Source: Chamaelirium japonicum (Eukaryota; Streptophyta; Magnoliopsida; Liliales; Melanthiaceae). Taken from it: DNA of 64,000 nucleotides. Under the pieces are notes generated by a model, which was given only the letters and a program-made list of their open reading frames with translations, did not search any database and had not been told where the DNA came from. Location of the stretch: assembly GCA_947650365.1 (NCBI GenBank), contig OX393549.1, forward strand, positions 21,256,572-21,320,571, read 5' to 3'. Below are positions 2,381 through 54,719 of this stretch, piece by piece; position 1 is the stretch's first letter; every line of letters begins with the position of its first letter. The position numbers and the translations under genes were made by a program.

Positions 2381-5100
2381 CAGGGGCGTAGCCAGGAATT
2401 TATTTTGGGCTGGGCTGAACCTAAACTAATTTTTTTATAATGAAAATTTTATTGTATACAGTAAAAAAAACTGAGTATAATTTCTTAAACGAATATCGAT
2501 AGACGAGAAAACTTTATTAATATAAAAATGATACATAAAACAGGCCATAAACTAGGAAAAAAAATAATGACACAATAAATAAACATGTAATGCAAATATA
2601 AATACATTACTGAAGTTGTGCCCTGCGATACTTCAGAGAGTAGAATTCATCAATTATCGAATCTGAATCAATATTTTCAGTAAGTTCTCTTTCAATGCAG
2701 ACAATCATGCAATTCGCAAGAAACTCATCCTCCATCTTGTTGCAAAGTATTGTTTTAATAAGTTTCATAACCGAAAAAGCTTGTTCTGTTGTTGCCGTAG
2801 AAACAGGTAAAGTCAACACAAGGCGAACCAATCTATCAATCAAGAAGTAAATTTCTGACTTTCTTGTTTCAACCAATCTTCGATATAATTCAGAAAGAGA
2901 AAACATATTCTGAAACTTTGAATGACAAGGTACATCAAACTCGTAATGCTCTAACTGATTTCTCAAAGTATGTATCTCAACTTGATTGAAATCTTGAGGA
3001 TAGAATTTCTCGGTAAGACTACAAATACTTTCAATATTAAATGATTTGAATCCATCACTAGGATCCAAAGCCGAGCTAAGAATAAGAAGTTCCATTGATC
3101 GGTCTGTGAATCTATTATCTAACTTCATCAACTGAAAATCAATCGCAGCGTTAAATATATCAATGCGGAAGTGATGCTCAATTGTAATATAGTCATGTTA
3201 CTGACAAGAACGATGTATACCCTCCATATAACGAGCACTCATATCAGACATATCAATAGCATTCATTTCACAAAATGATGTCACGTCTCCAATGAAAGTG
3301 TCCTAATCATCTTGTCTTAATTTCTGTAGAAGGTTTTTTGAGTTGAGACTAAATTCAAAGCATTTAAGATGTCTTGATTTTTGTGTTGCAATGCTTGACA
3401 AAGTACATCAGTGATTTCCATAACTTTATTCAACAAATGCAATATAAACACAAACTCAAAGGATCTCATTGCTTTATAAGCGCTCATAGCTTCACCACGT
3501 ATATTGTTGTTGAGTCCATTCTTAATCATGTTTTCAAGAACTGTGCAAGTTGCACCAAACATATCAATCAACCTACTAACAGAACCAAAATGTGAGCTCC
3601 AACAAGTAGCTCCGGCTCGTTGCAAAGTACGAATTTGATTAGCCCCTGTACCGGTCTCACATTCTCCAGAAGATATCATATCTGCAATTTCAGCTTCACG
3701 AGCAGATTTTAACTCAGAATGACGCTTGGGAGAAGCACTGACAAGATTAATAATAGAACCCAACTTTAAAAAGAATAGCCAAATATCATGCATATCTTTG
3801 GATGCCGCAACTAATGCTAATTGTAGTCTATGAGCAAAACAATGTACATAATATGCATATGGACAATCTTTAAGAAATAATGCCTGTAATCCATTCCATG
3901 CACCGCGCATGTTGCTAGCACCATCGTACCCTTGACCTCGTATATTTTCAACTTGAAGATTGTAACGAGTAAGGACATTGCATATCTCTTTTTTAAGAGT
4001 CAATGAAGTAGTGTCATCAACACTCACAACAACGAAAAAACGCTCTTGAACAAAACCATCGCAATCAATAAATCTTAGAACAATAGCCATTTGTTCTCTA
4101 TTAGATTGGTCAAGTGCTTCGTCGACAAGAATACAAAATTTCGCATCCCCAACTTCCTCACGAACCTTATTTCTCATTTTATTTGCAAGAATATTCAAGA
4201 TCTCCTTTTGAATTGTTGGTGAAGTATACTTGGCATTTCCCGAAGTATTTTCTAAAACAACTTCTGTAATTTCTTTATTCAATATTACCGAATACTATAT
4301 CAATTCAATAAAATTGCCACGGTTAGAGGACTCCAAAGATTCATCATGACCTCTAAAAGCACATGCTTGCATTGCAAGCCACTTAATGCTCCCTATTGTA
4401 GTCTTGATACGCAACCGATTCTGTAAAACTTGTTGTGAAGATTGTGCATTCATCACTTTGTCAATATATTGAGATGGATTTCTTAAGTTATCCCAATTAC
4501 GCATAGCTGTATTATGTGGTGAACAAGGAACTCCTACATGATGCATAAATACACATTTATCTCCATTATTAACTCTCTTCTAATTTTTAAATCCTTCGAC
4601 AGTAAATACCGGAAACTTTGGCGGATCACTATCAAAAAGAAAGCATGGAAAGCAAAATGCTCTGTCTTTTGCTTCAGAATACTTAAGCCAAGGAAACTGT
4701 ATGAACCAAGAATATTGAAATCGACGATATTGCTTGCCATCTTGGGAGCGTGGATACTCTGCTAATTTTGGTTGACATGGCTCCATGTTGATATATGCTC
4801 TTCGAATATCATCACGTTGATTAATAGGATATGTTGATATTGGACGACGTAATCCTGGATCATGTTCAAAAGAATTACCTTCTTTAACTTCGACTCTGAG
4901 AGACTTAGAAGGTCGCTCATTGAGATCATCAATAGTATAAGGAGAAGGCGTCTCACTTGTTGACTGATTATCTCTTTTCTTAAAAAATGAAAGAATATTT
5001 TTTTTTTGCTTGAGCATTTGATGATCTGACATTATAACCTATAATAACAAAATTTGAAGATTATAAGTTATCATGAGTAAGTGCAAAAAATATTTGACAA
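2381..5100 (-). mobile_element. hAT-superfamily DNA transposon, decayed
   Basis: The left terminus is CAGGGGCGTAGCCAGGAATT at 2381, a typical end of plant hAT elements encoding zinc-finger MYM-type-1-like transposases. The matching right terminal inverted repeat should read as its complement. I do not find it between 5040 and 5300, so the transposase-5' end of the element has been lost or overwritten. Left flank TTGAGAAC (2373-2380) would be the 8-bp target duplication, with no convincing partner. The element carries one transposase pseudogene on the minus strand. Confidence 0.8.
2607..5032 (-). pseudogene. hAT transposase (zinc finger MYM-type 1-like) pseudogene
   Basis: Reading on the minus strand from 5032: an N-terminal block (about 150 residues) with the TTF-type zinc-finger region (QYSWFIQFPWLKYSEAKDRA, FCFPCFLF). 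Then comes a block with WLAMQACAFRGHDESLES, the DUF4371/RNase-H-like core (CILVDEALDQSNREQM; GQGYDGASNMRGAWNGLQAL; YYVHCFAHRLQLAL) and a C-terminal hAT dimerisation block (VSTATTEQAFSVMKL). The order matches plant hAT transposases of about 750-800 residues. Visible lesions: the frame changes after EGFKN near 4580; an in-frame TAG follows FIELI near 4295, with a short deletion; a frame change and TAA follow STQKTFYRN near 3317; there is a further TAA near 3202. It cannot encode a working transposase. I am confident of the family. Confidence 0.9.
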
Positions 5101-53524: not shown

Positions 53525-53636
53525 GGGCCTGCTATGCTGCGGCATGCGGTAGGTGCGGCTCCGCACCGCTTCCGTCTGATGCACGCGCTGCGTGCATCAG
53601 ACGGCATGCGGTAGGTGCCGCACTTACCGCATTATA
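53525..53636. repeat. palindrome P1 (112 bp) between TA tracts
   Basis: The core is a perfect hairpin: CCGTCTGATGCACGC, a 3-nt loop, GCGTGCATCAGACGG. On either side lie smaller hairpins built on GCGGTAGGTGC and CCGCACC. The element fills the space between two (TA)n tracts exactly. No coding content. Confidence 0.85.

Positions 53637-53728
<92 letters not shown>
53637..53728. repeat. (TA)n tract 2
   Basis: About 46 TA repeats between P1 and P2. Confidence 0.9.
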
Positions 53729-53732
<4 letters not shown>

Positions 53733-53837
53733 GGATGCTTTGGTGCTGTCTGCGGTCCGCAGCCGTCTGATGCACCTGTCGCGTCCATCGAACGACTGCG
53801 GACCGCACGGACCGTAGATCGCACCTAAGCATCCCTC

Positions 53838-53839
<2 letters not shown>
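53729..53839. repeat. palindrome P2 (111 bp) between TA tracts
   Basis: The outer arms GGGGGATGCTTTGGTGC and GCACCTAAGCATCCCTCCC pair, as do inner TGCGGTCCGCAGCCGT and ACGACTGCGGACCGCA. It shares the core CCGTCTGATGCAC with P1 but is otherwise different. Confidence 0.85.

Positions 53840-53917
<78 letters not shown>
53840..53917. repeat. (TA)n tract 3
   Basis: About 39 TA repeats between P2 and P3. Confidence 0.9.
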
Positions 53918-53920
<3 letters not shown>

Positions 53921-54654
53921 GACGGGGAGCCTGGACCTCAGGTGCAGCATGAATGCTACACCCGTGCCTGCATGGATGCCAAGTGTCCTGCCAACTGTTT
54001 CCCCGAATTAATTCCTGACCGAACAACCCGCTGGTTTTTGTGGGATTATTATGAGCCGTCCAATCGTTAGGATCCAACGTAAGGGATTCATCCCGACCGG
54101 ATTCTCGCTGTTACTGTGCCCGGCACAGTAACAACGAGATTTTGGTCCGGATGAATTCCATCCGTTGGATCCTGCGATCGAGCGGTTCAAACAAATACCG
54201 GCGGGCTGTTTTGTTGTGTGGGTGAATCTCATCCGTCTGATCAATCGAATCGAACGGGCCAAAATAATTTCGCGGTTACTGTAGCCGCTATAGTAACCGC
54301 GAAATTATTTTGAGCCATCCGATTGAATGAATCCAACGGATGGGATTCACCCACACAACAAAACAGTCCGCCAGTATTTGTTTGAGCCGCCCGATCGCAG
54401 GATCCAACGGATGGGATTCATCCGAACCAAAATCTCGCTGTTACTGTGCCCGCCACAGTAACAACGAGAATCCGGTCGGCGGGATGAATCCCTTACGTTG
54501 GATCCTGGCGATCGGACGGCTCATAATAATCCCACAAAAACCGACGGGCTGTTCGGTAGGGAATTAATTCGGGGAAACAGTTGGCAGGACACTTGGCATC
54601 CATGCAAGCACGGGTGCAGCATTCATGCTGCACCTGAGGTCCAGGCTCCCCGTC

Positions 54655-54657
<3 letters not shown>
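53918..54657. repeat. palindrome P3: 740-bp near-perfect inverted repeat of nested hairpins
   Basis: The left arm (53918-54286) and right arm (54287-54657) are complementary over their whole length at about 93-95% by eye, out to the TA borders (GAGGACGGGGAGCCTGGACC against GGTCCAGGCTCCCCGTCCCC). The centre is the hairpin TTCGCGGTTACTGTAGC / CGCTATAGTAACCGCGAA. Each arm contains a second hairpin, CTCGCTGTTACTGTGCC... CACAGTAACAACGAG (54104-54138 and 54433-54467). About 45-bp modules containing (G)GGATGAATCCCATCC + GTTGGATCCTGCGATCGG occur six times in alternating orientation (near 54046, 54149, 54220, 54307, 54377 and 54480). No coding content. Confidence 0.92.

Positions 54658-54719
<62 letters not shown>
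54658..54719. repeat. (TA)n tract 4
   Basis: About 30 TA repeats directly right of P3. Confidence 0.9.

What the first reader, a model, noticed from the sequence alone, without database searches (positions are those of the whole stretch)
53918..54657. A 740-bp hierarchical palindrome seated exactly in a (TA)n microsatellite
Seen: the two arms pair over their full length up to the TA borders. Each arm has its own GTTACTGTG...CACAGTAAC hairpin, the centre has a third, and a roughly 45-bp module repeats six times in alternating orientation. This looks like serial inverted duplication of a small foldback unit. Known: the rice element Micron targets (TA)n tracts, but I know of none with this nested architecture. 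Inference: a microsatellite-homing foldback element, or DNA shaped by hairpin-capped replication. It may be a family not yet described.
Basis: partly seen in the sequence, partly recalled or inferred. Interest (0 to 1): 0.78.

Follow-up and report, generated by a model that had tools for sequence, protein, structure and literature searches.

The report
Microsatellite-seated foldback Mutator-like mini-transposon
This is one copy of an abundant, non-coding, hairpin-shaped jumping gene of the Mutator kind that inserts into TA repeats in a plant-sized genome; such elements are known, but here the two halves of the hairpin appear to have been re-copied from each other many times over.

Summary
Window 53918-54657 is a 740-bp imperfect palindrome (arms 89-94%) between (TA)n tracts, with smaller palindromes inside. 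Its 27-bp end occurs 1260 times in the host genome (reversed control 0); 1167 of these ends abut at least 8 bp of TA.

The kind is known: non-autonomous, microsatellite-targeting, foldback Mutator-like elements (MuTAnT, SaTar/Micron, Ac-mMITE). Outside TA, two copies carry exact 9-bp target duplications and a third 8 of 9. Inside TA only parity can be read: 39 of 41 facing end pairs sit in opposite TA registers, as an odd duplication predicts. A short neighbouring family is register-locked instead (1975 against 140 ends).

Less expected: in a chromosome-1 sample the two arms of a copy are far more alike (mean 0.884) than shuffled arms (0.673; 0 of 2000 shuffles). At least 18 separate lineages, 27 of 46 copies, have arms that are each other's closest kin, yet 20 sibling copies show no conversion tracts. 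The window copy itself is not among the 18.

The parts
53918..54657 (.). family A element: 740-bp non-autonomous foldback element, first base after the left TA tract to last base before the right one; left end GAGGACGGGGAGCC (family ends GGGG), right end GGGGACGGGGAGCC on the - strand
53920..54285 (+). left arm of the palindrome
   Evidence: I1, I2
54287..54655 (-). right arm of the palindrome
   Evidence: I1, I2
54042..54199 (.). inner palindrome of the left arm (element 125-282, 77% self-complementary)
54376..54530 (.). inner palindrome of the right arm (element 459-613, 78%)
54110..54132 (.). GTTACTGTGCC...GGCACAGTAAC hairpin, left arm
54275..54297 (.). central hairpin GTTACTGTAGC...GCTATAGTAAC (read by eye)
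54440..54462 (.). GTTACTGTGCC...GCCACAGTAAC hairpin, right arm
53840..53917 (.). (TA)n target tract, left; last base T
54658..54718 (.). (TA)n target tract, right; first base T (same base on both sides = odd duplication)

Best explanation
A non-autonomous Mutator-like foldback element (MITE) that a MULE transposase, supplied in trans, inserts by cut-and-paste into (TA)n tracts with a 9-bp staggered cut; tract lengths then drift by slippage. Shown: abundance, TA seat, 9-bp duplications at three copies outside TA, odd parity inside TA, use of both registers by the same arm type, and arms that evolve in concert. Inferred: that the transposase is a MULE of this genome; and that now and then one arm is used as template for the other (foldback synthesis during gap repair or replication of the hairpin), making a fresh near-perfect palindrome that founds a new lineage whose arms then drift apart.
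For: 27-mer end 618+642 times, reversed control 0. TA seat: 576+591 of 1260 ends, against 0.4% of window positions having 10 bp of TA on their left. 9-bp duplications TTACTATAA (L018) and TTGTAAAAA (L071) exact; L074 8 of 9, read by eye. Opposite registers 39 of 41 and 35 of 40. In sibling group G10 one arm type is preceded by T in 6 and by A in 3 of the 9 copies with TA on that side, so copies do not carry a fixed flank. MULE transposase domain PF10551: 150 matches from 150 scored of 1214 candidates, many in open frames of 700-830 aa. Arms.
Against: No transposase-bearing element with family A ends was found. The 7.2-kb pair of ends in L048 proved to be two separate short copies. No MULE frame was noticed in the frames printed from 252,709 bases of fetched loci, but only some of the 136 frames of 100 aa or more were printed, many in part, and no family search was run on them. 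Parity exceptions: 2 of 41; 5 of 40, three with only three terminal G/C and two (L030, L048) without that excuse; among the 20 sibling copies, 13 opposite, 4 same (L020, L030, both L032), 3 not scorable. Of 16 copies not pure TA on both sides (of 55), 13 show no clear 9-bp duplication. The paralogous empty site for L071 is weak. The arm re-copying mechanism is inferred from trees.
Confidence: 0.9

Rival explanations
1. A TA-duplicating Tc1/mariner (Stowaway-type) or another element with an even duplication (hAT 8 bp) in TA tracts.
For: TA seat; G-rich ends are not diagnostic. The short family B is register-locked as a TA-specific element would be.
Against: Family A uses both TA registers about equally (576/591), in opposite registers at its two ends (39 of 41), and has 9-bp duplications outside TA. 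Even family B shows 10-bp (2 exact, 1 with a mismatch) and 9-bp (2 with a mismatch) duplications in 5 of 14 fetched copies.
Confidence: 0.03
2. SaTar-style insertion by homologous recombination of a circle that carries microsatellite filler, not by staggered cutting.
For: Proposed for guayule; meant to explain arrays and flanks without duplications.
Against: Predicts no fixed odd parity unless the filler is always of odd length; sibling copies show both registers for the same arm, and three non-TA copies have 9-bp duplications.
Confidence: 0.08
3. The palindrome is an assembly artefact or a de novo hairpin of the TA tract.
For: Long inverted repeats are prone to misassembly (general knowledge).
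Against: Arms differ by about 10%; 47 complete copies; conserved ends on both sides; duplications at non-TA copies.
Confidence: 0.01
4. Arm likeness is kept by ordinary gene conversion between arms after insertion, rather than by occasional re-making of the palindrome in source copies.
For: Close inverted repeats convert readily in other systems (general knowledge); within-copy likeness is high.
Against: In three sibling groups (6, 4, 10 copies; 21, 18, 28 diagnostic sites) 17 of 956 cells carry the other arm's letter, scattered, with no two adjacent. The groups were chosen from the tree, so copies that had converted would tend not to be in them.
Confidence: 0.25

Closest known systems
MuTAnT, Medicago truncatula (PMC4486113; parts 1-2 of 4 read)
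   Same: Mutator-like, non-autonomous, foldback built of similar segments, GGGG/CCCC ends, seated in (TA)n, 9-bp duplications outside TA
   Different: first described at 292 bp, 90% of copies 200-300 bp, against 610-775 bp for 45 of 47 copies here; 218 copies against 1260 exact ends, i.e. at least 630 copies, here; family A shares only GGGG with its end, while short family B resembles it (GGGGTTTGCTAGAACA against GGGGCATGCTATAATG, 11 of 16 by eye). An autonomous element is known there, not found here
SaTar elements of guayule, rice, sorghum and citrus, incl. Micron = rSaTar2 (PMC5907723; parts 1-4 of 6 read)
   Same: non-autonomous MULEs of many families in arrays joined by microsatellites
   Different: those authors report 10-bp duplications in guayule and doubt cut-and-paste inside microsatellites; the parity here supports a staggered cut for family A. 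No arm phylogeny in the parts read
Ac-mMITE, pineapple (PMC8449440; parts 1-2 of 6 and passages)
   Same: (TA)n seat, GA/TC tracts at ends, clusters, 9/10-bp duplications
   Different: the words foldback and palindrom- do not occur in the text; two families there

Membership tests
Mutator-like (MULE) non-autonomous element | 8-11 bp, usually 9-bp, target duplication | tested here: met
   2 exact and 1 of 8/9 outside TA, among 16 copies not pure TA on both sides; odd parity 39 of 41 inside TA
Mutator-like (MULE) non-autonomous element | long terminal inverted repeats | tested here: met
   arms of about 370 bp
Mutator-like (MULE) non-autonomous element | ends shared with an element that encodes a mudrA-like transposase | tested here: inconclusive
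Microsatellite-targeting MULE MITE (MuTAnT/SaTar/Ac-mMITE) | most copies flanked by (TA)n | tested here: met
   1167 of 1260 exact ends
Microsatellite-targeting MULE MITE (MuTAnT/SaTar/Ac-mMITE) | non-nested arrays of different elements joined by microsatellite | tested here: met
   154 inter-TA segments at 39 loci plus the window fall by strict clustering into 11 groups of two or more (largest 42, 34, 32). Looser clustering joins 143 of 154, so how far the groups are unrelated is open. Absence of interruption was not counted
Microsatellite-targeting MULE MITE (MuTAnT/SaTar/Ac-mMITE) | empty TA site in related accessions | not testable with these tools
   the genome has no relatives held
Tc1/mariner (Stowaway) | TA duplication, element always preceded and followed by TA | tested here: not met
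   both registers, opposite at the two ends
hAT | 8-bp duplication | tested here: not met
   9 bp outside TA, odd parity inside

The most novel reading that the evidence does not exclude
In this family the palindrome is not an inherited shape but is re-made again and again: one arm is copied onto the other during transposition or gap repair, at several nested scales, and each fresh near-perfect hairpin founds a new active lineage. The element would then be a self-templating foldback whose activity depends on arm symmetry.
Probability: 0.4. Interest if true: 0.65.

Novelty: new member of a known kind. Interest (0 to 1): 0.42.

Why it matters
It places a striking structure in a known class and gives a simple genome-wide test (register parity of the two ends inside a dinucleotide repeat) that recovers whether the duplication is odd or even where it cannot be read. 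That bears on an open question for SaTar elements: staggered cut or recombination. The arm phylogeny indicates that foldback symmetry is renewed in many separate lineages, which makes the origin of foldback MITEs directly testable.

Tried and rejected
Autonomous partner: the 7.2-kb facing pair L048 is two short copies. A 4.3-kb facing pair, C1:110180797-110185112, was left unread: it includes a short copy at its right end and none of the 150 listed MULE places lies there. By eye, none of the listed MULE places on C1, or on C2 below about 59 Mb, lies within 7 kb of a listed family A end in the right orientation; the lists are capped.

Rfam on the window: 0 matches at gathering scores. Paralogous empty site: the joined flanks of L071 gave 40 scored rows, 2 of them its own flanks; 7 run past the joint (base 200) to bases 208-233 at 77-81%, the others stop between bases 184 and 201, so the repeat may simply end there. 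L018: flanks joined in a script but not searched. Species not identified: 12 contigs of 70-137 Mb within 1.52 Gb suggest a plant; no name claimed. Papers on concerted arm evolution in foldback or MULE elements: listings only, plus passages of PMC3169594, PMC4168063, PMC5225508 and PMC12477314; nothing on point was seen. Only open PMC papers are held, so this is no proof of absence.

Full report
What is there. The 740-bp interval is an imperfect palindrome lying exactly between two (TA)n tracts. The arms are 89-94% complementary, the self-match runs nearly end to end at 90.4%, and the strand folds 42 standard deviations better than its shuffles (0 of 20). Inside each arm is a more diverged, smaller palindrome (77-78%) round a GTTACTGTG/CACAGTAAC hairpin. 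A module recurs six times as three inverted pairs.

How common. The window lies in an unnamed 1.52-Gb genome with 12 large contigs. A DNA search scored 40 of 2319 candidates and returned 133 match rows. The exact 27-bp end occurs 1260 times, reversed control 0, so at least 630 copies. It is preceded by TATATATA 576 times and by ATATATAT 591 times: 1167 of 1260 ends abut at least 8 bp of TA. In a sample of 19 places taken in order from the head of the C1 list (window left out) plus one long pair chosen on purpose, 27 of 27 ends lie against TA repeats; two of them (L057, L059) have the run broken within 8 bp. Only 11 ends (21-bp version) have G or C at the third base out.

Neighbourhood. At the 39 loci fetched, plus the window, every segment of 60-1600 bp between TA runs was cut out: 154 segments, of which 96 of the 143 in the main cluster, and two singletons, are palindromic over more than 80% of their length. 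Strict clustering gives 11 groups of two or more, the largest with median lengths 399, 152 and 727 bp; looser clustering with the low-complexity filter off joins 143 of 154, so distant relation or shared GA tracts between groups is not excluded. Many segments begin or end in GA or TC tracts. In the window two short elements of the B type stand in the TA tracts just upstream (53525-53637 and 53730-53839). This is the array architecture published for SaTars.

Which mechanism inserts it. In a TA tract the target duplication is invisible, but slippage by whole TA units does not change parity: an odd duplication puts the two ends in opposite registers, an even one in the same. Of 41 facing end pairs under 1.1 kb in the listed parts of C1 and C2, 39 are in opposite registers (two-sided binomial 8e-10). 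Among fetched segments 35 of 40 family A segments are: of the five others three have only three terminal G or C, two (L030, L048) do not. In the 20 sibling copies, 13 are opposite, 4 the same (L020, L030 and both of L032) and 3 not scorable. Copies outside TA show the length directly: L018 TTACTATAA and L071 TTGTAAAAA are exact 9-bp duplications, and L074 matches at 8 of 9; the other 13 of the 16 copies without pure TA on both sides show none that is clear (55 copies examined). A search with the joined flanks of L071 is weak evidence for an empty site: 7 of 40 rows run 8 to 33 bp past the joint, most stop at or before it. Nine base pairs, long inverted repeats and G-rich ends fit Mutator-like elements, and MULE transposase domains are plentiful in this genome (150 matches from 150 scored of 1214 candidates). 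TA-duplicating mariner/Stowaway and 8-bp hAT insertion do not fit family A.

A contrast in the same genome. The short family B (GGGGCATGCTATARTGCGGC) is preceded by A-register TA 1975 times and by T-register TA 140 times: an even, register-locked seat. In the fetched segments under 200 bp 31 of 38 have even parity. Of 41 ends with G/C at the third base out I fetched 14. Five show duplications: 10 bp exact in L084 and L089, 10 bp with one mismatch in L080, 9 bp with one mismatch in L079 and L086. The other nine have TA or TC on one or both sides, no recognisable second end, or no match. So two insertion lengths seem to share one niche, like the 9/10-bp duplications of pineapple.

Arms evolve in concert. 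I split 46 complete copies (47 minus L010, a duplicate locus of L009) at the middle and compared the arms. In the 18 copies of the C1 sample (16 taken in list order, 2 from the chosen pair L048) mean within-copy arm identity is 0.884 against 0.673 when arms are shuffled among copies (0 of 2000 shuffles reach it), and for 29 of 36 arms the nearest arm is the partner in the same copy. In the other 28 copies, chosen for likeness to the window, the effect is smaller, 0.861 against 0.789 (0 of 2000), with 10 of 56 arms nearest to their partner, because siblings are sampled there. The arm tree has 18 disjoint clades with support of at least 0.85 in which the two arms of the same copies split cleanly, covering 27 of 46 copies; the other 19 are not resolved this way. 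The window copy is one of those: its left arm is a little closer to L011 (0.924) than to its own partner (0.910) by the ranking, and the node joining its arms has support 0.42. In three sibling groups (6, 4, 10 copies; 21, 18, 28 diagnostic sites) 17 of 956 cells carry the other arm's letter, scattered, with no tracts; the groups were picked from the tree, which favours copies that kept their arms apart. On this evidence the palindrome is not one old heirloom, nor is it levelled continuously: it is re-made now and then, and copies then multiply with the arms unchanged. Inner palindromes are sometimes more alike than the outer one (L067 96% and 91%; L056 94% and 89% on one side, 75% on the other) and sometimes less (window 77% and 90%) (8 copies looked at), as serial inverted duplication at several scales would give. 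Copying one arm onto the other by foldback synthesis during repair is the likeliest cause, but that step is inference.

What is known. MuTAnT (Medicago) is Mutator-like, TA-seated, foldback, GGGG-ended, with 9-bp duplications and an autonomous partner. SaTars, which take in rice Micron, are MULE MITEs in microsatellite-joined arrays. Ac-mMITEs do the same in pineapple. The window element is a new member of this kind. What I did not find in the listings (open papers only) is the parity test or a phylogeny of arms within copies.

Limits. Counts rest on exact end matches and are lower bounds; place lists are capped at about 100. Arm trees used a plain midpoint split, one alignment and midpoint rooting.

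Noticed in passing
window 53525-53637 and 53730-53839: Two short (about 110 bp) imperfect palindromic elements of the B type in the TA tracts directly upstream of the finding, forming an array with it.
   Followed up: partly
genome-wide; L078-L091: Short family B is register-locked in TA (1975 A-register ends against 140 T-register); 5 of 14 fetched non-TA copies show 9-10 bp duplications: a second insertion length in the same niche. Its end resembles the published MuTAnT end (by eye).
   Followed up: partly
L009-L047, inter-TA segments: Other palindromic groups with (TA)n(GA)m or (TC)m(TA)n borders, e.g. ends GAGAATACGGGGTATGAGCTG, GTAGTGATACATTGCGGC, GGGGAGGGATACTCTTACTCATGG.
   Followed up: no
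L009 and L010: Two loci about 3.3 Mb apart on contig C9 carry the same series of TA-linked elements, i.e. a duplicated array.
   Followed up: no
L041:3445-4401 (-) and window 2610-4294 (-): Open frames that look like hAT-type transposase pieces (by eye, recalled; no family search run).
   Followed up: no
L032:2069-3616: Two family A copies almost touching (6 bp between them), both with same-register ends, an exception to the odd-parity rule.
   Followed up: no
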